DNA of 64,000 bases from Gelidibacter gilvus. Lineage in GTDB: Bacteria > Bacteroidota > Bacteroidia > Flavobacteriales > Flavobacteriaceae. Below are positions 2,803 through 51,984 of this stretch, piece by piece (the stretch's first letter is position 1; each line of letters opens with the position of its first letter). Both the position numbers and the translations under genes were made by a program. The stretch lies in the NCBI RefSeq assembly GCF_004115975.1, contig NZ_SDDZ01000001.1, positions 744,001-808,000 on the forward strand, read 5' to 3'. A model generated the notes under the pieces. That model had not been told where the DNA came from. It searched no databases and saw only the letters and a list, made by a program, of their open reading frames with translations.

Positions 2803-5800
2803 TCAGAACCCAGAACTTAAAACAAACCGTTTGGTAATAATTTGTCCGTTGGAAAGTTCGACTTTGGCAATATAAGCAGCTTGACTTAAATGGCTTAGAT
2901 CGTAAATTTCAGTGGTATTGTTACCTTTGAATTGATTTAGAGTTCTACCCAATATATCCATAACTTCTACGGATATGATACTCAGATTTTGTCCAACAGA
3001 GAATTCAACTTGGGCGTTACTAAGTTCAATAATAGATAAATCTTTGGTGTCCATAATAAAGTTGACCGCGGACAAGGTTTTGTTTTGAAATACAATAACA
3101 AAGCGATTGTTAAAGTCGCCAGTTGCTGAGGTGAAATTATAATCAGAGACCGATAGATTATGATGAATATTCAGGAATTCATCTTTTAGAAAGAGATTGT
3201 TTTCGTCAAAAAATTGACCTTGAGTCTGGGCAACGGACAATTTATACAAGGTTGGCTGTGAAATTGAAGTCTTCAATCCTAAGGGAATTTCTTCTTCTAA
3301 ACTTAAACTGTTAACTGCTTTTCCTTGAATGGCATATTTCTTATTACTTTCAGGAATTTCCGTGTATATGACGGCACTCAAACCCGTTGACAGATTGCGC
3401 TCAGCATCATAGGCAAATCCGTCAACCCCATCAGTTGCACCATCCACATAAGCCACCAAAACTTGATTAAAGACCCCATTATCTGAGGTAAGGTTAATCC
3501 AGAATTTATTTGGTACGTCTGAAGGAGCATTTCTGAAAAACTGAGAGTTGCTATTGGCGTCGGCCATCCTCATGGAATTTTTGAAGGTTAGTATGCCGCC
3601 GTCATTGATTCCTATAACAAAAAAGCCTTGACCTGTCGGAATATAATCCAAGGGCATTTCGGCTGTTCCACCAGCTGTATTTCCACTTCCAGTAGTAATT
3701 ATGGCATAATCATTTCTATTGAAGTTAAGCACTTGATTGCCGGGATTACTTGCCAAAGGTGGACTGGCTTGACTCCATAAATATGCTGCGCCAGATATGA
3801 CATCCGAATTTTGGCTATGAACGAGTTTAAAATCAATAGCAGATGGGTATGGATTCCCAATAAAATTCCAGTCCTTGTCGGTCGCAATGGCATTTGTATG
3901 AATGGTGACTGAGATATTTCCGTTATTGAATTCGCCATTAAACACGGTGGCATCAATTCGCGGGAATGTTCCGGAGTTGTTAGAAGTAGAGGCATAGCCT
4001 ACACCCGGAATCATACTTCCGGTGGCTAACTGCCAATCGTCACCATTATCATCAACATCATCACCATTGATGTCTTCATAGTTTGCAGCCTCAAAATAAA
4101 ACCGTCTATTGGGAGATGCCATACTCAATACAGATTCGACGGATTCATTGGTTACGGGCGAACTCCAATAGGTATAGTCATACCAATTCTGCTTTGGTGC
4201 AGTAGATTTTCTAACCCTTGCAGAGGCTGGGATTTCCAATGTAAAACGTCCTGCATCGCCGTCATCCCCGCGTTGCACAAACGCTCCTTTACTCTCGACC
4301 ACGATTTCACCAAAGTTCATAGGCGAATTTCCATTGACAAGCACATCAGTCATTACTTCCACATAATACTCATCCGTAATATTTAAGGTAAACCCAGAAT
4401 TTACAACGAGGCTACAAGCAGTAAAGTTTCCAGATGTAGGACTTGTTGTATAATTCCCATTAATAATTGCAGTTGTATGTTGGTCTGGAATTGACGGATT
4501 CCAATTTAAGCCATCCCAGGTTGTCTGATTGATCTCCAATCTAACGGCATTGCTGGCAGAATAGCATGTTGCACTACTCTCACGGATTTGCGCGTAATAT
4601 TGATAACCGTCCAAATTAAGGATTCTCAGGATGGTTAAAGCACTACTTTGTTGACCGGAGTAGTCAAGATTTGTTTCCAATATTTCGACCCAATTTACGG
4701 TTCCAGGTGCGTTATAATACCATTGATAGGTTAACGGAAATCCACCCGGAACACCTTCTGTTCCCGAAACCTGTAATGTTGCCGTTAAAATGCAGTTTGA
4801 GTTTGGTGCAATTGGCTGAACGTTTAGCATAGGCGAGGCGCCTCCTGAATAATCGTAGTGTCCAATATCTGAATAATCATTTGTGCCACATGAGCTGGGA
4901 CCTGAACCTACCCAATCAATGATATTCCATTCGCTAAGATTAAAAGTGGGATTTGGGAGCAAAGAAGCAGTATTCAAACGTCTAAAGTTAAATCCTCGAT
5001 CTCCGGTAATCAGTGTCGCATCCATCCATGTATTATCCATATATACGCCAAATTGATCAACAACTTCCGTCCCATTGGATTTTAATAATCTGATGAGGTC
5101 GTGTTCATTATCTTTTTTGTTAATGCCGCTTATAAAAGTGTTTGTTAAAGCCGCAAATTGACCATTTGCACCTTCTTGTGAACATGAGTTCGAATTGGTT
5201 GGATTTGTAGCAACCCCAATGGCTACGACATAGGTTGAATTGTTTGCTAAAGGGACACCTTGAAGTGAAAACGTATGAGTGGGAGCGCTTGATCCATTGT
5301 TATAGATGCTTAAAGAATACTCTCCCAATGGTACCGTTGCGCCTGTACCATTATAGATTTCAATATAACTTAACCCGCCTACTGTGGCGTCAGTAACCTC
5401 GCTGATAAATAAATCAGAAAGACTAGCGCTTCCTTCGCAACCTCCAATGAGGTTGTCTATAATAGTAAATGGGATGGTACTGATACATCCAATGCTGTTG
5501 ACCACTACGATATGACCCGTTGCCGCATTAACTGGAATGGTCACTTCAATGGTGGTCGAATTGATAAAGGTTGTTGCCATTGCAATACCGCTCATACTAG
5601 CAAGGGTAGAGCCGTCAAAATTTGTTCCGGTAACAGTCACGATGGTTCCAATGGGTCCTATCGATGGACTAACTGAGCTGGTCGTCGTAACGCAACGTCC
5701 TGTGCCTCGAATGTCAAAAGTATAGGGGTTTTCATCAGGATCATTATTAGAGATGGACACGACTGCATTTCTATTACCAGCCGCTAAAGGCGAGAATTCA

Positions 5801-7350
5801 ATTTCTAAAATTGAAAATTCTCCAGGAAAAATTGATCCAGCGGGATTTATGATTATTGTAAAATCTCCAGGATGGGCGCCAATAATCGTAACGTTGGAAA
5901 CGGTTAGATCAAAGTTGCCAAGGTTCTGAATGCGGTAGGATTTGGATTGGGTAGCACCTATAAATTGAGCAGCAAATAATGTATTATCAGTACCCTGCGG
6001 GGAATTATCCCCATTAACAATCTCAGGGAATGTGCCTAAGTTACCCTCCACCCTAATTTCAGGTGCCATCACATTCAACACTCCAGAAATATAGGTCGAC
6101 CCATCCCAAAAGCTGCCTGCTGAACCATCCGCCATAATGCCACCGTATGACCAGATGCCGCTATTCAATCGAAAACGTGTGGCGTAATAATAGATTCCGT
6201 GACTGGTAATGGCAGCACCTAAATTAGCGGCATACTCATCATTCTGTCCATCGTTACAATCTAAACAAGCGGCATTATAAGTCGCAGGAATCCAATTGGT
6301 CCATGTGTTTGGATTGGTGTTTGTAGGACTATAACCAATCTCTGCTATAATACCAGGGCCTTGGCCAGTTCCTGGGGTGATCCCTTGTTCATATACTTGT
6401 CCGTAAACATCAAAAGCATCTCCTAAATTGATGGTTCCGATTCCTGGGAATTGTAGGTTGCAGAAATCGACGGTATCCACGCTCAATACGCCGCTCAAAT
6501 TGGAGGTACCATCCCAAAAACCACCACCTGATCCACTATAACCACCATAGCTGTATGGTCCACCATCTAATTGAAATCGACTTGCGTAATAATAGGTTCC
6601 AGAAGTTAATGTCGTACCGATGTTGGCAACATATTCATCGTTATTTCCTGATTGTCCGTTAAAAGTTGCAGGCAGCCATGTCCATTCTGCTGAGTTTGGA
6701 TTATTGTTTAGGATGTTATAGCCGATCCAAGCCGAAATGCCAGCACCCTGTCCCGCAGCTTCGGTGATTCCAGCTTTGTAAACTTGGGCATAAACATCAA
6801 ATCCGTTTCCTACTGTGATGTTTCCATTTTGAGGAAACTGGAGGTTGCAGTAATCTACCGTAGCTGTAGACGCTGCTGTCCAGGAAATGTCATCGATTTT
6901 TATCTGATTACCTGAAGTGCGCAATTCAAGGAATACTGTTCCAACAATATTTACATTACTACTGTATATTGTCGGAATGTCAGAACTTGGTGAAACAATA
7001 ATCTCAGAGCCCCACTGAACCCCATTGATCCAAACCGTTATGCTACGTGGACCTAGACCTGTAAATGCTCTTGCATAGGTGAAGGATAACATTCCAATTC
7101 CTCCAGAATAAATTGGAGAGGTTATGGATCCAGTATTGTTTAGGCAAATTGCTCTACCATTTAATATTTGATCCGTGCGTGCGTTGGTCGCATTCCAAAT
7201 AGTTGTTCCATCATCTCCCGTCCAACTTCGGGGTTGATAGGTATTAGGACTTGATGTTGGAATGTTCGTAAAACTCTCCGAGCCTTGCCCATACCCAGAC
7301 AAACCAATGCATAAGAATGCTACCAATAAGAGGGTGTATTTTTTAATCAT
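2803..7350 (-). CDS. Large secreted multidomain protein with T9SS type A sorting domain
   Basis: A 1515-residue secreted or cell-surface protein. It has a signal peptide (residues 1-21, ending GYGQG). A jelly-roll-like N-terminal module (about 25-160) is followed by two tandem copies of a roughly 130-residue module starting with DYCNLQFP at about 163 and DFCNLQFP at about 293. A choice-of-anchor-D-like domain (about 430-550) follows, with PGDFTIIINPAG and SNNDPDENPYTFDIRGTG. Then come an IPT/TIG domain (about 553-640), a lamin-tail-like domain (about 645-790) and a C-terminal T9SS sorting domain (about 1440-1515) with DILGRTLN and YIAKVELSNGQIITKRFVL. The final SSGF and the stop codon lie inside a short-period intergenic repeat. 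No catalytic domain was recognised; an adhesin or surface-binding role is inference only. Confidence 0.85.
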   Translation of the reverse strand: MIKKYTLLLVAFLCIGLSGYGQGSESFTNIPTSSPNTYQPRSWTGDDGTTIWNATNARTDQILNGRAICLNNTGSITSPIYSGGIGMLSFTYARAFTGLGPRSITVWINGVQWGSEIIVSPSSDIPTIYSSNVNIVGTVFLELRTSGNQIKIDDISWTAASTATVDYCNLQFPQNGNITVGNGFDVYAQVYKAGITEAAGQGAGISAWIGYNILNNNPNSAEWTWLPATFNGQSGNNDEYVANIGTTLTSGTYYYASRFQLDGGPYSYGGYSGSGGGFWDGTSNLSGVLSVDTVDFCNLQFPGIGTINLGDAFDVYGQVYEQGITPGTGQGPGIIAEIGYSPTNTNPNTWTNWIPATYNAACLDCNDGQNDEYAANLGAAITSHGIYYYATRFRLNSGIWSYGGIMADGSAGSFWDGSTYISGVLNVMAPEIRVEGNLGTFPEIVNGDNSPQGTDNTLFAAQFIGATQSKSYRIQNLGNFDLTVSNVTIIGAHPGDFTIIINPAGSIFPGEFSILEIEFSPLAAGNRNAVVSISNNDPDENPYTFDIRGTGRCVTTTSSVSPSIGPIGTIVTVTGTNFDGSTLASMSGIAMATTFINSTTIEVTIPVNAATGHIVVVNSIGCISTIPFTIIDNLIGGCEGSASLSDLFISEVTDATVGGLSYIEIYNGTGATVPLGEYSLSIYNNGSSAPTHTFSLQGVPLANNSTYVVAIGVATNPTNSNSCSQEGANGQFAALTNTFISGINKKDNEHDLIRLLKSNGTEVVDQFGVYMDNTWMDATLITGDRGFNFRRLNTASLLPNPTFNLSEWNIIDWVGSGPSSCGTNDYSDIGHYDYSGGASPMLNVQPIAPNSNCILTATLQVSGTEGVPGGFPLTYQWYYNAPGTVNWVEILETNLDYSGQQSSALTILRILNLDGYQYYAQIRESSATCYSASNAVRLEINQTTWDGLNWNPSIPDQHTTAIINGNYTTSPTSGNFTACSLVVNSGFTLNITDEYYVEVMTDVLVNGNSPMNFGEIVVESKGAFVQRGDDGDAGRFTLEIPASARVRKSTAPKQNWYDYTYWSSPVTNESVESVLSMASPNRRFYFEAANYEDINGDDVDDNGDDWQLATGSMIPGVGYASTSNNSGTFPRIDATVFNGEFNNGNISVTIHTNAIATDKDWNFIGNPYPSAIDFKLVHSQNSDVISGAAYLWSQASPPLASNPGNQVLNFNRNDYAIITTGSGNTAGGTAEMPLDYIPTGQGFFVIGINDGGILTFKNSMRMADANSNSQFFRNAPSDVPNKFWINLTSDNGVFNQVLVAYVDGATDGVDGFAYDAERNLSTGLSAVIYTEIPESNKKYAIQGKAVNSLSLEEEIPLGLKTSISQPTLYKLSVAQTQGQFFDENNLFLKDEFLNIHHNLSVSDYNFTSATGDFNNRFVIVFQNKTLSAVNFIMDTKDLSIIELSNAQVEFSVGQNLSIISVEVMDILGRTLNQFKGNNTTEIYDLSHLSQAAYIAKVELSNGQIITKRFVLSSGF

Positions 7351-45370: not shown

Positions 45371-47617
45371 TTGAAAAAACTCACGTACATAATCGTTCTC
45401 ACCCTTTTCATTTCCCTATCAATGAACGGTCAGGACAGCATTCCGCAGAAACCACAAAAAACGCCCAAAATAGGTTTGGTTTTGAGTGGTGGTGGCGCCA
45501 AGGGATTTGCGCATATTGGCGTGTTAAAAGTGATTGACAGCTTGGGTATTAAGATTGATTATATTGCAGGAACCAGCATGGGTGCCATCATAGGCTCATT
45601 ATATGCCTCTGGCTATTCTGGAAAACAATTGGATTCTATTTTTAGTTCCCTCAATTTTGATGACGTTATTAACGATAATCTTCCAAGGTCTGCCAAAACA
45701 TTTTATGAGCGGGACAATTCAGAACGGTACGCCGTGACGCTGCCATTTACAAACTTCAAGCTGAAACTGCCTTCAGCGCTATCAAGAGGTCAAAATGTAT
45801 TTAATCTGTTATCGAAACTAACCTTGCATGTCACCGATATTCCCGATTTTGACAAGTTGCCAATTCCTTTCTTTTGTGTGGCTACCGATGTGGAAACGGG
45901 GAAAGCTATTATTTTGGATCATGGAAATTTAGCCCAAGCTGTTACGGCAAGCGGGGCGTTCCCCTCTTTATTTCAGCCGGTTATTATAGATGATCGTGTA
46001 CTTATTGACGGCGGTGTCATTAATAATTATCCTATTGATGAGCTGAAGGCCAAAGGGATGGATTTAATTATTGGCGTGGATGTGCAGGACGGTTTGGCCA
46101 AACGGGAAGACTTAAATTCGGCACCTTCAATTTTACTTCAGATCAATAACTATCGGACTATTAGTGATATGATCAAGAAAGTTGAAAAAACCGACATCTA
46201 CATTAAGCCAGATATAACCGATTATACCGTGGTGTCCTTTAGCGAAGGCAAAAAAATTATTGAAAGTGGTGCAAGGGCAACGCGCATAAAACTTGATGAA
46301 TTAGGACAACTTCCAAAATACAAAAGCTCAAGAGGCGTAGAGATGGACCTTACTTCTAAGGATAGTATCGCTATTAACGAGATTAAGATATATGGAAATA
46401 ATAGATATACTCGCGCCTATATTTTGGGGAAATTGAAGCTTGTTGAAGATACTAAAGTGAGTTATGCTAATTTTAATGAGGGTGTAAATAACTTGGTAGC
46501 GACCAATAACTTTACCACCTTCTATTTTGAATTTGAAAAGACCGATAGACCCAATGTCTTTAATTTATTGGCTACGCTGGATGAAAGTAATGTTACCAAC
46601 TTTTTAAAATTTGGGATCCATTATGATGATCTATATAAAAGTGCAGCGTTGGTGAATTTTACTAAAAAACGGGCTTTGTTAGATGATGATGTCGTGTCCT
46701 TAGATTTGATCTTGGGCGATCAGGTACGCTATAATTTTGAGTATTATATAGATAAGGGCTTTTACTGGAGTATTGGCCTGCGTTCAAGATTTAATCAATT
46801 TAACAGAAATGTCAATGTGAAATTGTTTTTGAATGATCAAGAGCAATCCTTGGCGGGATTAAACAAGATTGGTGTTGAAATTGAGGATCAAACCAACCAG
46901 ATTTATATTCAAACCATGTTTGCAAAAGATTTCGCACTAAGTTTAGGCGGAGAACATAAGCGCTTGAAAATAAAATCGGAAACTGTGTCTGCCAATATCC
47001 CAGGTGGGACACGATTTTTTGAAAATACAGATTATTTGTCCGTTTTTGGAACCTTAAGATTGGATACTTATGACAATAAATACTATCCAAAAACAGGTTT
47101 TTATTTTAGTGGGGATTTTCATCTTTATCTTCACGCATCTCATTTCAATAAAGATTTCAATAATTTCTCTATTGCCAAAGCGGATATAGGCTATGCTTTT
47201 GGAATCTCCGATAAATTATCAACCAATATTTTTACCCAAGGTGGATTTAAAATTGGCGATAACAATACACAGTCGCTCGATTTTGCTTTGGGCGGTTATG
47301 GCAATAATTTCATCAATAACTTTATTTCATTTTATGGCTATGATTATATCACCCTCACCGGAGATAGTTTTGTAAAAACCACGTTGAGTTTGGATTATGA
47401 GCTTTTTAAAAAGCACCATATTACCGTCGCAGCCAACTATGCCAACATAGGCTATGGTCTCTTTGAGTCGGGTACTTGGTTCTCATCTCCTACTTATTCG
47501 GGGTATGCACTTGGTTATGGACTGGAAACATTTTTAGGGCCATTGGAAGCAAAATACACCTATTCTCCTGAACTTGGTGAAAGTATTTGGTTGTTCAACT
47601 TAGGGTTTTGGTTTTAA
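45371..47617 (+). CDS. Patatin-like phospholipase fused to an outer-membrane beta-barrel
   Basis: A 748-residue exported protein. After a signal peptide (1-20), a patatin domain (about 34-320) shows the oxyanion hole SGGGAKG (39-45), the nucleophile elbow GTSMG (Ser69) and the partner Asp in LIDGGVINNYP (about residue 213). A POTRA-like segment (about 335-410, INEIKIYGNNRYTRAYILGKL) leads to a 16-strand-type barrel ending LWLFNLGFWF-like SIWLFNLGFWF. This is the PlpD/type Vd-like architecture. The start is TTG at 45371; no ATG precedes the signal peptide. It converges on a repeat array. Confidence 0.9.
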   Translation: MKKLTYIIVLTLFISLSMNGQDSIPQKPQKTPKIGLVLSGGGAKGFAHIGVLKVIDSLGIKIDYIAGTSMGAIIGSLYASGYSGKQLDSIFSSLNFDDVINDNLPRSAKTFYERDNSERYAVTLPFTNFKLKLPSALSRGQNVFNLLSKLTLHVTDIPDFDKLPIPFFCVATDVETGKAIILDHGNLAQAVTASGAFPSLFQPVIIDDRVLIDGGVINNYPIDELKAKGMDLIIGVDVQDGLAKREDLNSAPSILLQINNYRTISDMIKKVEKTDIYIKPDITDYTVVSFSEGKKIIESGARATRIKLDELGQLPKYKSSRGVEMDLTSKDSIAINEIKIYGNNRYTRAYILGKLKLVEDTKVSYANFNEGVNNLVATNNFTTFYFEFEKTDRPNVFNLLATLDESNVTNFLKFGIHYDDLYKSAALVNFTKKRALLDDDVVSLDLILGDQVRYNFEYYIDKGFYWSIGLRSRFNQFNRNVNVKLFLNDQEQSLAGLNKIGVEIEDQTNQIYIQTMFAKDFALSLGGEHKRLKIKSETVSANIPGGTRFFENTDYLSVFGTLRLDTYDNKYYPKTGFYFSGDFHLYLHASHFNKDFNNFSIAKADIGYAFGISDKLSTNIFTQGGFKIGDNNTQSLDFALGGYGNNFINNFISFYGYDYITLTGDSFVKTTLSLDYELFKKHHITVAANYANIGYGLFESGTWFSSPTYSGYALGYGLETFLGPLEAKYTYSPELGESIWLFNLGFWF

Positions 47618-47620
47618 CAC

Positions 47621-47880
47621 TTCGACTGCGCTCAGTGTGACAGTCTGATGTCAGGGTGAGCGTCAATGTCAGGGTGAGCGTCAATGTCAGGGTGAGCGCA
47701 GTCGGACCCCTTTATAATCCTAAACCATAATTTGGCATATCCAGCCCTTCGACTGCGCTCAGGGTGACAGTCCGATGTCAGTGTGAGCGTCAATGTCAGG
47801 GTGAGCGCAGTCGAACCCCTTTGTAATCTTAAACCATAATTTGGCCTATCCAGCCCTTCGACTGCGCTCAGGGTGACAAC
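47621..47880. repeat. Tandem repeat array between convergent genes
   Basis: Two long units, 47621-47747 (127 bp) and 47748-47856 (109 bp), plus a partial third (47857-47880). The 18-bp length difference equals one extra copy of an internal 18-bp subrepeat built on ATGTCAGGGTGAGCG. Each long unit begins TTCGACTGCGCTCA and contains its reverse complement near the end (TGAGCGCAGTCG), so each can form a long stem-loop. Both units also share the word CCATAATTTGGC. The GC content is clearly above the surroundings. Confidence 0.85.
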
Positions 47881-47891
47881 TATTTAAAATT

Positions 47892-50576
47892 TTAGAGCTT
47901 ATAAGCCACTTTAAACATTATAATTCTCGGCATTATAAACGTTTTACTGTCACTGATCAAAAAACTGTTGAATGAATTCTGTTGCTTAAACCGCATATCA
48001 AATAAATTTGTAGCGTTGATTTCAAAGCCCCACGGACTATCCTCCAATTGATAAAATAAGGACGCATTGGCTGTGTCAAAGGTGTTTTTGGTGTTGTTAC
48101 TTTTGTTGTGATAGCTATCAAAGGCATAATCTGCCTTAAAGATGAAGTCCCTTAAAAAATCATATTGTAGAATGGCAAAAAAATTATCGTTTTCAAAATT
48201 GCTTATCACATTTGAAGATCGGTAAGCATTGAAATCTTTTTTGTAGCCAATGTCTATATTTGGCAATTTTTTAAAGAAAGTCTCCGCGCTGACTGTTGAG
48301 GAAACGGATTTTGAAATATTCAGATCCGTGTCGTCGTTCAAAATTTGGTAAAAGTCATTATAGTTGAAGTTGCTTCGTAATTTGTAACGAATCTTGTTGA
48401 TTTTTTTTGAAATGGCGCCGTTAACGCTCCAACTATGTTCTGGCAAATCAAAGAAAACAGGCGTGCTGTATTGTTCAATGCCTTGTAATTGGGTAACATT
48501 CTTAAAGTGTTCCACCTTTTTATTGAAATTTGTATTGAGGTTAAGGTTCAGGTTTCTAAATAGACTGAACTTGTGATAGTTCAAACTCACCGTATGGTAT
48601 AATTGATTTTCCAAAGTGGCATTGCCTTTATAAACGCTATTGAAATTGTTCAAAACGAAATTGTTGGCCAATTGTTCAATACCCGGGAAACGTGCATTGA
48701 AGCTGTATTTGAAATTGATTTTTTCGCTGTTATTGAATTCAATTTTGGTGGTAAATTGGGGTAATATCAGAGCTTTGGTGTGATTGCTTTTTTCATCAAA
48801 CTGTTGGGTCTGCCAACTGTAAAAATGGGTGTATAGCATCGGTTTGAACGTAGCAATCCCGAACTGGAATTTGTATTCCAAGCCCACAAAGGTGTTCAAG
48901 AAATCATATCCAAAATCATTGCCAAAACCTGCCGTATTAAAGTTGTTGATGGTGCCATTGCTCAGCTGTTGTACATCCTGATTGTAAAAATCGGTAAAAG
49001 CGGCATTGACGCCCACACTTGTATAAATATGATTAAAATTGTTGAGTACCCAATAGTCTTTTACAATGGCATTGACGCTGTGTGCGCTACTGCGTTTGGT
49101 CTGTAAAATATCATAAAGTTCATCCTCTTCCAAAGGAATCAAACCTTGTAGGATTTGTTGGTTGGTCAACCATTCCGTTAGCGGTTTATCATTTTGAAAG
49201 GTATAGGTAGCTTCTAACGTGCCCGTATGGTTTTTGGATAGTTTCCGGCTATAGGTAATGTTCTGTTTAAGGTTTAGGGCATTGATATCAGTATTGCTGG
49301 CAATGCTATTGTTTTGAATGGGGTTGATGGTATTGATCAATCCCTTGCTGTCATTATTGGTGACTTTAATAAAACTATTGTAGGCAAAATCTTCCTCAAA
49401 ACTTGGCTTATAATTCAAGGTGAGTTTACCAATGGTGAAAAAGTTATTGAAGTTGTTGGTCGTGGTACGGTTTTCAAAATAGGGGTCTTCGTTGTTCAAA
49501 TACTCATTTGTAATATGGCTCTCGGTATCGGTCTTACTATTTGAACTGATAATGTAACCACTAACATCCGTGACGTTGTTGATGGCCTGTCTAATATTTA
49601 AAGCCCCAAATTGATTGGTATTTGCGGTATAATCTTGATTGTTGAGGTAGCGTGCAAAATCACTATTGAAAAGATCAAAATAGCTGCTGGCATCACTTAA
49701 GAGTTTACCAAAACCACCTTCAAACTCCAAATAATCCCTAAAACTAAAACTTTTAATGCCTTGATTGTTGAGATCTCCAATAAAATTGACATTGGTTTTA
49801 GGGCTATAATAAAATAAGTTTGGGTTGATCAAATAACGGTCTTTGATACCCGCACCGGCTTCAATGTCTCCAAAGGTAAATTTCTTTTTGTCTTCCTTTA
49901 GTTTAATGTTCATGGCCATGTCTTCATTGTCCTGTAAGCCTTTGAGCATGGCAACCTCATTATAATTGTCAAGTATTTCTACTTTATCAACCGCGTCTGC
50001 AGGAATATTATTGACCGCCAATTTGCTATCGCCTGTAAAAAAGGTTTTGTTCTCCACCAGCACCTTGGTCACTTTTTTGCCCTGTACGGTAACGTTGCCC
50101 GCTCTATCAACTTCCACTCCTGGTAATTTTTTAAGCGCATCACGTAGTTTTCGCTCTTCACCGGTAACAAATTTGCTTACATCATAGGTGATCGTATCTT
50201 TTTTGACCACAATGGGAGGCGTGTAGTTAATGGTGACTTCATCCAATTGGTCTGGATTTTCTTTAAGGACGAAATTCTGTATGAGATTGTCTTCTGTGGT
50301 GGTCAAAACCTTGGTATGAGGTGTAAAACCAAGAAAGCTTACGGTAAGGTTGTAGGTTTGGTTTTTGGAGAGGCTAAGTTGGTAGCTGCCATTGTATTCG
50401 GTAATGGCGAAACGCACCTCCTCATTATCATTTTCAGGAATGGCTAAAATGTTTGCGTATGCCAATGGATTTTGAAGGGTGTCTGTGACTTTGCCAGAGA
50501 CTTTGACTTGTTGGGCATAAGAAGAAAATCCTGCTAAAAGTAGCAGGATTGTGTTTTTTATATGAAATAATTTCAC
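47892..50576 (-). CDS. TonB receptor-like outer-membrane barrel protein linked to GLPGLI
   Basis: An 894-residue outer-membrane protein. Signal peptide (1-21), CarboxypepD_reg-like domain (about 23-105, VSGKVTDTLQNPLAYANILA), a plug-like domain (about 110-225, LRDALKKLPGVEVDRAGNVTVQGKKVTKVLVENKTFF) and a long Asn-rich barrel of the OMP_b-brl_3 type ending RIIMFKVAYKL. The start is GTG at 50576, 6 bp after the GLPGLI stop; there is no ATG nearby. A perfect 10-bp hairpin lies over codons 9-17. It is the last gene of a peptide-GLPGLI-receptor operon. Ligand unknown. Confidence 0.85.
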   Translation of the reverse strand: MKLFHIKNTILLLLAGFSSYAQQVKVSGKVTDTLQNPLAYANILAIPENDNEEVRFAITEYNGSYQLSLSKNQTYNLTVSFLGFTPHTKVLTTTEDNLIQNFVLKENPDQLDEVTINYTPPIVVKKDTITYDVSKFVTGEERKLRDALKKLPGVEVDRAGNVTVQGKKVTKVLVENKTFFTGDSKLAVNNIPADAVDKVEILDNYNEVAMLKGLQDNEDMAMNIKLKEDKKKFTFGDIEAGAGIKDRYLINPNLFYYSPKTNVNFIGDLNNQGIKSFSFRDYLEFEGGFGKLLSDASSYFDLFNSDFARYLNNQDYTANTNQFGALNIRQAINNVTDVSGYIISSNSKTDTESHITNEYLNNEDPYFENRTTTNNFNNFFTIGKLTLNYKPSFEEDFAYNSFIKVTNNDSKGLINTINPIQNNSIASNTDINALNLKQNITYSRKLSKNHTGTLEATYTFQNDKPLTEWLTNQQILQGLIPLEEDELYDILQTKRSSAHSVNAIVKDYWVLNNFNHIYTSVGVNAAFTDFYNQDVQQLSNGTINNFNTAGFGNDFGYDFLNTFVGLEYKFQFGIATFKPMLYTHFYSWQTQQFDEKSNHTKALILPQFTTKIEFNNSEKINFKYSFNARFPGIEQLANNFVLNNFNSVYKGNATLENQLYHTVSLNYHKFSLFRNLNLNLNTNFNKKVEHFKNVTQLQGIEQYSTPVFFDLPEHSWSVNGAISKKINKIRYKLRSNFNYNDFYQILNDDTDLNISKSVSSTVSAETFFKKLPNIDIGYKKDFNAYRSSNVISNFENDNFFAILQYDFLRDFIFKADYAFDSYHNKSNNTKNTFDTANASLFYQLEDSPWGFEINATNLFDMRFKQQNSFNSFLISDSKTFIMPRIIMFKVAYKL
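50527..50550 (-). promoter_or_regulatory. Perfect 10-bp hairpin inside the start of the receptor gene
   Basis: AATCCTGCTA (50527-50536) and TAGCAGGATT (50541-50550) around a 4-nt loop. On the transcript it is followed by a U-rich stretch. It covers the signal-peptide codons just after the GTG start and may act as an attenuator or translation block. Confidence 0.45.
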
Positions 50577-50582
50577 AAAACT

Positions 50583-51320
50583 TCAATTTTTAGATTTGTT
50601 CTCAAAACCATACTCGTCAATTTTTTGTGAAATGTAGGCTTCAAATTCTTCAGATGTTATTTTGATTCCTTGAGTCGGTTTATTGATTTGCACTTGGTTT
50701 TCAAAGGTTATCTCTGTTGCATAATAATTAATATCACCATAGTTTAATTCTAAAATTAATCCTGGAAGTCCACTGTAACCTCTTGGGCCAAAAGGCAGCG
50801 GGATTTCCGTGGTAAACCATGCCGTAATTTTAATGTCATTGACGTAGATTTTATTTTTCTCAAGGATCATCTCTGCTTTTAAACACTTGTAGTTTGCTAT
50901 TAATTTTGTTTCAGAAGTCAGTTTCCAATCTGTTCGTATCGCATCCTCAATTAAAAAGATCTCACCAAGCATTGTTCTTTGAATGGTAACTTTTTGATTT
51001 TTTAAATTTGTGTAGTAAATTTCCTCACCGCCTAATAACTTGGCAGATTTCAGAAAGAAATCACTTTTGTCAGTATCATTAACCAAAGCACTCTCTATTT
51101 TAAAAAGAGACTTTTCTTTATTGAATTCAAGATGATATTTTAACTCATCCAATCTGGAAATGGTTCTATTATAAAAGTCAATATTACTGTCTTTAACACC
51201 CTGATCGCTCTTCTTTTTAGAAGCATTGATTTTATAAAAAACAGATCCGGAGTTTTCTTGATTTTGAGAAAACCCAATGAATGTTAAAAACAGTAATAGA
51301 AAAGTTAGTTTAATTTTCAT
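50583..51320 (-). CDS. GLPGLI family protein
   Basis: A 245-residue exported protein with a signal peptide (MKIKLTFLLLFLTFIGFSQN). The family-defining motif is GYSGLPGLIL at residues 181-190, preceded by the usual ITAWFTTEIPLPFGP and followed by ELNYGD. The family is confined to Bacteroidota and often sits beside a TonB-like outer-membrane protein; the molecular function is unknown. Here it lies 8 bp after a small-peptide gene and 6 bp before the receptor, so the three genes form one transcript. Confidence 0.95.
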   Translation of the reverse strand: MKIKLTFLLLFLTFIGFSQNQENSGSVFYKINASKKKSDQGVKDSNIDFYNRTISRLDELKYHLEFNKEKSLFKIESALVNDTDKSDFFLKSAKLLGGEEIYYTNLKNQKVTIQRTMLGEIFLIEDAIRTDWKLTSETKLIANYKCLKAEMILEKNKIYVNDIKITAWFTTEIPLPFGPRGYSGLPGLILELNYGDINYYATEITFENQVQINKPTQGIKITSEEFEAYISQKIDEYGFENKSKN

Positions 51321-51328
51321 TTATTATT

Positions 51329-51559
51329 TTAATAAGGTCCAGACTCGCTTTCCATGCAGTCTTCATAGACCCAGGCACCCAATTCTAAAGCTCGCGCCCT
51401 GTCGTTCCACGTGAATACTGCTGCTTCATAGATACCCATTGCCATTTCAAAACAGTCTCCAGGTGAATCTTCAATTTGATTATTCATCATAGAAGCGTTT
51501 GCATTAAAGGAGCTAGTAAAAAATAGAACTGCGACTAATAAACTTAATACTTTTTTCAT
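51329..51559 (-). CDS. Small secreted peptide precursor with two Cys
   Basis: A 76-residue precursor with a clear signal peptide (residues 1-22, ending NANA), leaving a mature part of about 54 residues. It holds exactly two Cys (36 and 68), an Ala/Glu/Trp-rich helical core (CFEMAMGIYEAAVFTWNDRA, then LELGAWVYEDC), and an acidic net charge. The spacing C-x31-C suits a disulfide-closed helical hairpin. I recognise no family. It is the first gene of the GLPGLI operon. An inverted repeat, AAACCTA/TAGGTTT (51576-51600), lies in its leader. It could be a structural partner, a signal or a bacteriocin-like peptide. Confidence 0.75.
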   Translation of the reverse strand: MKKVLSLLVAVLFFTSSFNANASMMNNQIEDSPGDCFEMAMGIYEAAVFTWNDRARALELGAWVYEDCMESESGPY

Positions 51560-51620
51560 AATTTCTAAATTTTTAAAACCTACATTTTTTTAATAGGTTT
51601 GGTTATTAATTTGTTTTTCC

Positions 51621-51745
51621 TACAAAGTCTTAAAAATTACAAAGTCGTGTTTTACAAAGTCAAAATCTACAAAGTCTTAAAAAAATAAACCAGCTGGTTT
51701 TGGATCAATCCAGTTTGTTTCAAATGGCCAAGAAGTGACTTTGTA
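51621..51745. promoter_or_regulatory. Four direct TACAAAGTC repeats plus one inverted copy upstream of the peptide operon
   Basis: TACAAAGTC starts at 51621, 51638, 51653 and 51668 (steps of 17, 15 and 15 bp), with GACTTTGTA at 51737-51745. They lie 60-190 bp upstream of the small-peptide start. The regular spacing suggests binding sites for a regulator, though it could also be quasi-repeat spacer DNA. Confidence 0.55.
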
Positions 51746-51984
51746 ATTACTCCAAAAACCATCATCAACGTGTCAAACATAAAAAAAAAAAACGATAAAT
51801 ACAAGTTTTATTTGCATTTATTTTAGTGTTTCATATTGATAATAAATTGGTTAGGTTTTTTAGCCTTGCGAAGTATCATCAGTGCTGAGAACTACGGGAA
51901 AACCGTAATCGGAATTATTTTTAGATTGTTTTAGAAAAAACTTTCTGCAAGCATAGAATTTAGATTATTTCAAATTCTTTTTTC

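What the first reader, a model, noticed from the sequence alone, without database searches (positions are those of the whole stretch)
47892..51559. Small secreted two-Cys peptide, GLPGLI protein and outer-membrane receptor in one tight operon
The three genes are spaced by 8 and 6 bp. The first encodes a 76-residue precursor with a signal peptide and exactly two Cys (36, 68), the second a GLPGLI protein (motif at 181-190), the third a TonB-like barrel with a GTG start. GLPGLI-barrel pairing is familiar in Bacteroidota but has no known function. The added peptide suggests that the pair exports, displays or senses a dedicated peptide.
Basis: partly seen in the sequence, partly recalled or inferred. 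Interest (0 to 1): 0.7.

Follow-up and report, generated by a model that had tools for sequence, protein, structure and literature searches.

The report
Swappable secreted peptide–partner gene cassettes
Next to one conserved outer-membrane transporter gene, marine flavobacteria carry exchangeable gene pairs, each coding for a small, very variable secreted peptide and a matching helper protein, which looks like a weapon-and-antidote or identity system and offers a first testable role for the unexplained GLPGLI protein family.

Summary
The three genes are real and exactly where stated. They belong to a recurrent system in Flavobacteriaceae. One clade of TonB-dependent-transporter-like barrels is preceded by cassettes of a small secreted peptide plus a GLPGLI protein: 48 of 64 clade barrels pass a strict rule, against 2 of 69 other GLPGLI-linked barrels (Fisher 1e-19). 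The rule demands two or more Cys; 66 of 68 clade hits have 2 or 4.

At the same site in Gelidibacter species the barrel is 82-94% identical, but mature peptides are 13-37% and GLPGLI 27-43% identical, one cassette pair excepted (94%). Peptide and GLPGLI distances correlate independently of the barrel (partial Mantel 0.42, reached by 0/2000 permutations). Cassettes form tandem arrays with broken barrel 5' ends between them. The window's cassette moved between species (dS 0.15-0.23; flanking genes 0.76-1.20). A third of GLPGLI genes (37 of 112) lack a detected intact peptide, some behind a peptide relic; 2 of 77 peptides lack GLPGLI.

Best reading: polymorphic effector-immunity-like peptide cassettes serving one conserved transporter. 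Toxicity, immunity and transport direction are untested.

The parts
51329..51559 (-). Small secreted peptide gene, 76 aa; leader residues 1-22, mature part acidic with Cys36 and Cys68
   Evidence: homologues; no match over cut-off in Pfam or NCBIfam
50583..51320 (-). GLPGLI family protein, 245 aa, Sec-type leader; AlphaFold2 model pLDDT 90.7 with the fold of the PNGase F-II N-terminal bowl domain and a LolA/RseB-like half barrel
47892..50576 (-). TonB-dependent-transporter-like outer-membrane protein, 894 aa: CarbopepD_reg_2 domain, plug-like region, barrel
   Evidence: the clade is separated by a score gap
51537..51932 (-). Conserved upstream region, 79-92% identical in sister species, found wholly or in part before each cassette of G002 and G003 and ending just inside the peptide gene
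   Evidence: (alignment blocks between positions 1669 and 2066 of the reversed window stretch)
51893..51907 (.). Palindrome TACGG-N5-CCGTA about 340 nt upstream of the peptide start; candidate regulator site
   Evidence: 21 of 71 cassettes against 3 of 100 control upstream regions
51622..51675 (-). Four direct repeats ACTTTGT upstream of the peptide start; three or four copies before all nine Gelidibacter cassettes (in L045 before the first of its two peptides), not as a repeat in the other genera

Best explanation
A polymorphic effector-partner cassette system built on a TonB-dependent transporter. The peptide is exported by Sec and folds in the periplasm, probably held by a disulfide (inferred from the even Cys count). 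The GLPGLI protein, predicted to have a LolA/RseB-like cup fold, binds its own peptide and neutralises or escorts it (inferred from co-variation, one-to-one pairing, and retention of GLPGLI after peptide loss). The conserved barrel passes the peptide across the outer membrane, most likely outwards as Oar does for PopC in Myxococcus (analogy). Outside, the peptide acts on close relatives lacking the matching GLPGLI: a bacteriocin-like or kin-discrimination role (inferred). Cassettes are swapped and stacked by recombination between the conserved upstream region and the barrel 5' end (inferred from mosaic DNA and broken barrel ends, which are shown), and extra GLPGLI genes are kept as a stock of immunity genes (inferred).
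For: Specific linkage: 48 of 64 clade barrels against 2 of 69 others. One conserved delivery component with variable cargo: barrel 82-94%, mature peptide 13-37% and GLPGLI 27-43% identical at the same site in Gelidibacter, one shared cassette (94/94%) excepted; second genus, with Lacinutrix: barrel 85-96% (four genomes), leader 73-82% and mature peptide 25-30% (three), GLPGLI 30-35% (three). Co-diversification: partial Mantel of peptide and GLPGLI given the barrel 0.42, 0/2000; peptide and barrel 0.14 unadjusted (0/2000) but 0.016 given GLPGLI; the leader follows the barrel (partial 0.22) rather than GLPGLI (0.02); the last three partials were not permuted. Horizontal exchange: dS 0.15 and 0.23 in the shared cassette against 0.52 barrel, 0.76 and 1.20 flanks. 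Arrays: 15 loci have two or more intact cassettes, six of them three, with truncated barrel 5' ends between cassettes in several. Asymmetry: intact peptide without intact GLPGLI 2 of 77, GLPGLI without detected intact peptide 37 of 112, Fisher 8e-8; relics with an in-frame stop lie before L119_7966, L129_11042, L199_612 and, with a weak match, L207_5016. Presence/absence: 5 of 9 Gelidibacter have the operon; G004 keeps an 838-bp block at 89% identity that contains the barrel's 3' end. Cup-like GLPGLI fold. Precedent for TonB-dependent export (PMC6434023, abstract and one section seen).
Against: No toxicity, immunity or secretion was shown. The peptides searched (45 of 73) resemble no known family. 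They are small and acidic (median net charge of the mature part -7), unlike common membrane-active bacteriocins, which are usually cationic (recalled). The characterised transporters of this fold mostly import (recalled). No diversifying point selection in the one close pair (dN/dS below 1). Some 'orphan' GLPGLI genes may have a peptide that my start-codon and distance rules missed (L121_11170, L128_9932 and L212_3664 show peptide-like frames); ten of 64 clade barrels have no peptide by any rule I used. Co-variation of the barrel-adjacent GLPGLI with barrel segments was weak and mixed. The pairwise identities behind the Mantel tests are near the noise level of alignment.
Confidence: 0.43

Rival explanations
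1. Export-chaperone or signalling system without killing. GLPGLI is a peptide-specific periplasmic escort that hands a harmless signal or surface peptide to the barrel; variability reflects self-recognition pheromones.
For: LolA-like fold, LolA being a carrier; one-to-one peptide-GLPGLI pairing; a palindrome upstream of cassettes that also lies just behind a histidine kinase/response regulator pair elsewhere in the genome.
Against: Escorts without cargo should be lost, yet 37 of 112 GLPGLI genes have no detected intact peptide and some follow a broken peptide gene.
Confidence: 0.22
2. Import system. The peptide leaves the cell by an unknown way, binds something outside, and the barrel takes the complex back up to GLPGLI, like a siderophore made of peptide; variation stops neighbours stealing it.
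For: The closest Foldseek matches of the barrel are uptake transporters such as FyuA, Cir, FptA and FhuE; GLPGLI would be the periplasmic receiver.
Against: The barrel changes little while the peptide changes almost completely, the reverse of a specific uptake receptor; there is no conserved set of metal-binding side chains besides the cysteines (alignment, 45 of 73 peptides).
Confidence: 0.14
3. Receptor guard. The peptide stays in the periplasm and plugs or locks the barrel against phages or bacteriocins, as the small disulfide-bonded T5 lipoprotein Llp does to FhuA; variation reflects an arms race.
For: Llp acts on FhuA from the periplasmic side and has a Cys11-Cys58 disulphide (PMC9586334, passages seen); the FhuA-Llp structure is among the fold matches of the barrel, as are many other FhuA entries.
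Against: A fixed site on a constant barrel does not call for hypervariable binders; no lipobox over cut-off (LPAM_1 12.3 bits against 20); co-variation is with GLPGLI more than with the barrel.
Confidence: 0.08

Closest known systems
GLPGLI-barrel gene pairs of Bacteroidota (TIGR01200, Porph_ging)
   Same: GLPGLI gene directly upstream of a barrel with a CarbopepD_reg_2 domain
   Different: Other pairs mostly have no peptide gene (2 of 69 pass the strict rule); here the GLPGLI is hypervariable and moves with the peptide
Polymorphic effector-immunity arrays, e.g. Vibrio cholerae type VI clusters (PMC5361080, abstract and outline seen)
   Same: Variable effector-like gene with its partner, conserved machinery, horizontal exchange, surplus partner genes kept after the effector is lost
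   Different: Effector here is a small peptide with a Sec-type leader, the machinery is an outer-membrane transporter; toxicity not shown
Oar/PopC secretion in Myxococcus xanthus (PMC6434023)
   Same: Transporter of the same N-terminal architecture, which the paper says dominates in Bacteroidetes; cargo reaches the periplasm before export
   Different: PopC is a protease, with no GLPGLI partner and no cassette exchange that I know of (recalled); direction of transport unknown here
LolA/LolB and RseB/MucB periplasmic cup proteins; PNGase F-II bowl domain
   Same: Predicted fold (Z 17.2 to the bowl domain, about 6 to 9 to LolA, LolB and RseB/MucB)
   Different: No sequence match to LolA or RseB chains of the PDB; peptide-specific variation. 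The bowl domain's function is itself described as unknown (PMC9522356, passages seen)

Membership tests
GLPGLI family (TIGR01200) | Score over curated cut-off and GLPGLI motif | tested here: met
   166.2 bits against 50; motif at 184-189
TonB-dependent transporter | Transporter barrel fold | tested here: met
   AlphaFold2 pLDDT 87.9; the best Foldseek matches are such transporters (E 1.3e-15 FyuA, then Cir, FptA, FhuE), though TM-scores on the query are only 0.29-0.39 and rmsd 13-20 A. In VIA the top row is a chain of the Mtr complex, Z 15.8, tied with FhuA 15.2 and BtuB 14.7
TonB-dependent transporter | Plug domain over Pfam cut-off | tested here: not met
   PF07715 at 16.6 bits, cut-off 23.9; the plug-like segment 107-240 is the most conserved of five segments
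TonB-dependent transporter | TonB box between N-terminal domain and plug | tested here: inconclusive
   L111 in 68 of 68, E113 in 61, V or I at 114 in 68 (LDEV-like); that this is the Bacteroidota TonB box is recalled
TonB-dependent transporter | Needs TonB/ExbBD for transport | not testable with these tools
   Needs an experiment
Polymorphic toxin or effector-immunity system | Hypervariable effector-like gene beside a co-varying partner and a conserved delivery component | tested here: met
Polymorphic toxin or effector-immunity system | Horizontal exchange and surplus partner genes | tested here: met
   the surplus count may include peptides missed by the rules
Polymorphic toxin or effector-immunity system | Toxin as C-terminal domain of a large trafficking protein | tested here: not met
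   The peptide is a separate gene of 61-116 aa
Polymorphic toxin or effector-immunity system | Toxicity, and protection by the partner | not testable with these tools
   Needs an experiment
Double-glycine peptide bacteriocins or class II microcins | Double-glycine leader and peptidase-type ABC exporter next door | tested here: not met
   Leader is Sec-like by eye; flanking genes are a patatin/Omp85 protein and an HgmA-like protein; that these features define the family is recalled
LolA carrier | LolA fold and sequence | tested here: inconclusive
   VIA Z about 6-9, near the level the tool calls common; no LolA sequence match

The most novel reading that the evidence does not exclude
A new class of interbacterial peptide weapon of Bacteroidota: disulfide-stapled Sec-exported peptides released through a dedicated TonB-dependent transporter, each neutralised by its own GLPGLI protein, with arrays of spare GLPGLI immunity genes and cassette swapping by recombination at conserved flanks. 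It would give the GLPGLI family its first function and add another case of TonB-dependent export.
Probability: 0.3. Interest if true: 0.92.

Novelty: new variant of a known kind. Interest (0 to 1): 0.8.

Why it matters
GLPGLI proteins are common in Bacteroidota and I know of no established function (recalled); in the held library the word GLPGLI occurs in three papers, and the passages seen in one of them (PMC9603813) only list them as regulated genes. Here one subset is tied to a hypervariable secreted partner, which turns 'function unknown' into direct tests: does GLPGLI bind and neutralise its own peptide, and does the barrel export it? If true it reveals a recombining peptide arsenal or identity code across Flavobacteriaceae, and a source of small Cys-containing peptides (precursors of 61-116 aa) that the family libraries searched here do not recognise (45 of 73 peptides searched). 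The nearly constant barrel with swapped cargo also makes it a natural test case for TonB-dependent export.

Tried and rejected
Rejected: (1) a chance ORF: excluded by homologues, purifying selection and controls. (2) A general feature of GLPGLI-barrel pairs: not so outside the clade (2 of 69), although L147, just below the score gap (740 bits), has a two-Cys secreted ORF 284 bp before its GLPGLI and two of nine more distant barrels pass the rule with unlike peptides. (3) A known peptide, defence or phage family: Pfam, NCBIfam and PHROGs for 45 of 73 peptides and PADLOC for the window's three proteins gave no convincing match (NCBIfam and PHROGs each two families matched by one member at E 0.002-0.01; a PDB profile search gave a designed helical repeat at E 0.006). 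(4) Diversifying point selection: not seen in the close pair; near-duplicate peptides in one locus gave dN/dS 0.19-0.49. (5) Covariation of barrel segments with the adjacent GLPGLI, 60 loci: weak and mixed (permutations reaching the value: N-terminal domain 10/1000, plug 894/1000, barrel 241-420 132/1000, 421-650 1/1000, 651-894 14/1000). (6) An own-genome regulon from the palindrome: 10 sites against 16 for the reversed control pattern with a 4-7 spacer, so no enrichment over the whole genome. (7) A structure of the peptide or of a peptide-GLPGLI complex: not run, because only two structure jobs were allowed and no coordinates are returned. (8) A search for the peptide alone finds few relatives (4 of 299 family genomes with one sequence; 45 of 299 at E 0.01 with nine, many of them leader-only matches inside long frames), so the survey was anchored on the barrel. 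(9) The paper searches for bacteriocin, TonB and immunity terms listed nothing whose title or abstract start describes this system; subscription journals are mostly not held. (10) A class-wide panel of 395 genomes gave 8 matches; I looked at two new ones: L296 has three peptides and four GLPGLI genes, L297 (another family, lower score) has none; G039, G415 and G533 were not looked at.

Selection to bear in mind: A2, the barrel model, was built from eight loci fetched because they carry GLPGLI or the peptide. Before counting, loci near contig ends were dropped (5 clade, 1 other), as was 1 clade locus without GLPGLI; of the named set L189, L195, L210 and L217 had no complete barrel ORF, and L127 of the panel is cut by its contig end and gave no barrel ORF. 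Panel and named sets share genomes; duplicates were removed by sequence, but not in the listing. In one search the GLPGLI genes of L178 and L220, with a peptide at 225-260 bp, were counted as having one.
Full report
WHAT WAS CLAIMED AND WHAT IS THERE. The three genes are confirmed on the minus strand: peptide 51329-51559 (76 aa), GLPGLI 50583-51320 (245 aa), barrel 47892-50576 (894 aa, GTG), with gaps of 8 and 6 bp. GLPGLI scores 166.2 bits against TIGR01200 (cut-off 50). The barrel has a CarbopepD_reg_2 domain at residues 26-116 and a sub-threshold plug match. The window belongs to the same genus as Gelidibacter algens: genome G001 of that genus holds a 24177-base contig whose barrel is 100% identical to the one on the 24177-base contig NZ_LZRN01000050.1 of G. 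algens.

SURVEY. A barrel model from eight loci (A2) was run on 299 genomes drawn evenly from the family. Scores fall into a high group (34 barrels in 33 genomes, 826.8 bits and above) and the rest (742.3 and below). I fetched the 34, three further Gelidibacter loci and lower-scoring control barrels, and 80 named loci, the best of 500, from the genome collection. One strict rule was applied to all: ATG start, 55-125 aa, hydrophobic leader, at least two Cys after residue 20, ending within -60 to +140 bp of a GLPGLI gene. It is met by 48 of 64 clade barrels (800 bits and above) and by 2 of 69 other GLPGLI-linked barrels of 500-750 bits (Fisher 1e-19); one of those two, L165, looks spurious. Among 9 still more distant barrels 2 met it, 5 did not and 2 had no GLPGLI. 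Of 762 unrelated genes in the same loci 8 met it. Of the 16 clade misses, relaxed rules show a peptide in L123, L125, L138 and L139, in part with an unresolved start codon, and at 225-260 bp in L178 and L220; ten remain. The edge is not sharp: L147, at 740 bits, has a two-Cys secreted ORF 284 bp upstream. A class-wide panel (395 genomes, 8 matches) added L296, with three peptides and four GLPGLI genes; L297, lower-scoring and from another family, has none; three more matches were not looked at.

THE PEPTIDES. In 73 unique cassettes the peptides are 61-116 aa (median 75); 46 have two Cys, 25 four, one three, one five. Of the 46, 37 have the two Cys 30-34 residues apart and 20 exactly 32. The mature part is acidic in 69 of 73 (median net charge -7). 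Apart from the cysteines little is conserved (A4, 45 chosen of the 73: Cys36 and Cys68 are the only invariant columns). For these 45 Pfam, NCBIfam and PHROGs gave no convincing family; PADLOC was tried with the window's three proteins.

CASSETTES CHANGE, THE BARREL HARDLY DOES. In Gelidibacter the operon lies between a patatin/Omp85 gene and an HgmA-like gene. There the barrels are 82-94% identical, but nine cassettes differ at 13-37% in the mature peptide and 27-43% in GLPGLI, except that the window's cassette and the middle cassette of G002 agree at 94% and 94%. DNA comparison shows why: about 370 bp upstream are conserved (79-92%) and stand, wholly or in part, before each cassette of G002 and G003; the peptide and GLPGLI genes mostly do not align; similarity resumes within the first 80 bases of the barrel gene. 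Barrel differences between the window and G002 or G003 are concentrated in the first 100 residues (28 of 58 and 29 of 62), less so against the more distant G007 (29 of 154). A second genus, which includes Lacinutrix, repeats it: 4 of 13 genomes have a clade barrel; barrels are 85-96% identical, and in the three with a peptide found the leader is 73-82% and the mature part 25-30% identical; three GLPGLI proteins compared are 30-35% identical. Over the 73 cassettes, peptide and GLPGLI distances correlate (Mantel 0.44; 0.42 given the barrel; 0/2000 for both). Peptide and barrel correlate weakly (0.14, 0/2000) and not once GLPGLI is given (0.016); the leader follows the barrel (partial 0.22) rather than GLPGLI (0.02) (these last three partials were not permuted). 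So the mature peptide and its GLPGLI form one exchangeable unit.

EXCHANGE, STACKING AND LOSS. Between the window genome and G002, dS is 0.15 (peptide), 0.23 (GLPGLI), 0.52 (barrel), 0.76 (HgmA-like) and 1.20 (patatin): the shared cassette is much younger than its surroundings. G003 has three cassettes before one complete barrel, with fragments of the barrel's 5' end after the two upstream ones; G002 also has three cassettes, one followed by such a fragment, and an inserted transposase gene with a second gene. Such fragments lie upstream in 10 of 70 unique clade loci by one test (loci with under 500 bases upstream were skipped); L198 shows two by another. Fifteen loci have two or more intact cassettes, six have three. 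The operon is present in 5 of 9 Gelidibacter genomes (in G001 the contig ends before the HgmA-like gene, so its site rests on the patatin neighbour); in the other four the site is empty, and in G004 a block at 89% identity containing the barrel's 3' end remains beside the upstream region.

ASYMMETRY. Of 77 peptide-like intact ORFs, 69 are followed by an intact GLPGLI within 140 bp, two at 225-260 bp, four stand before a second, similar peptide, and two have no intact GLPGLI (L179 second peptide; L198 at 3273, with a truncated GLPGLI relic) (a fifth 'followed by another peptide' entry, L196, is not peptide-like and was dropped, as were 15 frames without a match to the peptide model). Of 112 GLPGLI genes away from contig ends 37 have no detected intact peptide (Fisher 8e-8). 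Before some of these lie peptide relics: with in-frame stops in L119_7966, L129_11042, L199_612 and, with a weak match, L207_5016, or shortened or lacking a normal start in L124_9636 and others. Some orphans may have a peptide my rules missed (L121_11170, L128_9932, L212_3664). That the partner is kept when the peptide is lost, hardly ever the reverse, is what immunity genes do; a pure escort would be expected to go too. The comparison leans on short peptide genes being as easy to find as long GLPGLI genes, which they are not.

STRUCTURE. GLPGLI (56-sequence alignment, pLDDT 90.7) matches the bowl domain of PNGase F-II at Z 17.2 and VioE, LolA and RseB/MucB at about Z 6-9.5, the latter near the level the tool calls common. 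The barrel (68 sequences, pLDDT 87.9) matches TonB-dependent transporters (Foldseek E 1e-15 to FyuA and Cir, low TM-scores); in VIA a chain of the Mtr complex (Z 15.8) ties with FhuA (15.2) and BtuB (14.7), and residues 24-107 match the carboxypeptidase transthyretin-like domain (Z 13, 1.4 A). An LDEV-like stretch follows the N-terminal domain; calling it a TonB box is recalled knowledge.

REGULATION. A palindrome TACGG-N5/6-CCGTA lies 251-367 nt (18 of 21 times 321-367 nt) upstream of the peptide start in 21 of 71 cassettes, across genera, against 3 of 100 control upstream regions and a mean of 0.01 in shuffles. Elsewhere in the genome one copy lies just behind a histidine kinase/response regulator pair (G000:C17:11658, L273), but the palindrome is not enriched in the genome as a whole.

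MECHANISM. Shown: linkage, variability, co-variation, exchange, stacking, asymmetry. Inferred: disulfide, GLPGLI-peptide binding, transport by the barrel, action on neighbours, immunity. Closest precedents are effector-immunity arrays in Vibrio cholerae, where old immunity genes are kept after effectors are replaced (PMC5361080, abstract and outline), and the transporter Oar needed to secrete PopC (PMC6434023, abstract and one section). I hold the weapon-and-antidote reading at 0.43; a harmless signal or surface peptide with an escort, a re-imported binding peptide, and an Llp-like receptor guard (PMC9586334, passages) are the rivals.

NOVELTY. I call it a new variant of a known kind (polymorphic effector-partner cassettes), with parts not known to me to be combined before. 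In the listings I saw no description of it; the library lacks most subscription journals.

Noticed in passing
L152:378-638 and 6421-6642, L052:6417-6734, L237: Other, more distantly related GLPGLI-barrel operons carry different small secreted peptides with 3, 4 or 6 Cys; the principle may reach beyond this barrel clade.
   Followed up: partly
L203, L148, L142: Tandem runs of seven, five and four GLPGLI genes before one barrel, with no peptide (L203, L148) or two (L142) found.
   Followed up: partly
L038:8272-10594: A transposase gene with a Mu-transpos_C_2 domain and a second gene are inserted inside the G002 cassette array.
   Followed up: no
window 47620-47880: Short interspersed repeats (CTTCGACTGCGCTCAGGGTGACA and similar) between the patatin gene and the barrel 3' end; matches of 23-39 bp also at the empty sites of G006 and G008.
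   Followed up: no
window 45371-47617: Patatin phospholipase fused to an Omp85 barrel, next to the operon in Gelidibacter; L297 of another family also has a patatin-like frame (2823-5171, containing PKIGLVLSGGGAKGMA; label by eye) under 6 kb before a GLPGLI-barrel pair.
   Followed up: no
L286:15403-16640: Downstream of the barrel of G307 (contig length that of Lacinutrix mariniflava) stands another small secreted ORF (111 aa) followed by a 276-aa GLPGLI protein, without a second barrel in the fetched stretch.
   Followed up: no
L215:2626-5178, L199, L214: Within one locus several peptides share a nearly identical leader but have different mature parts.
   Followed up: partly
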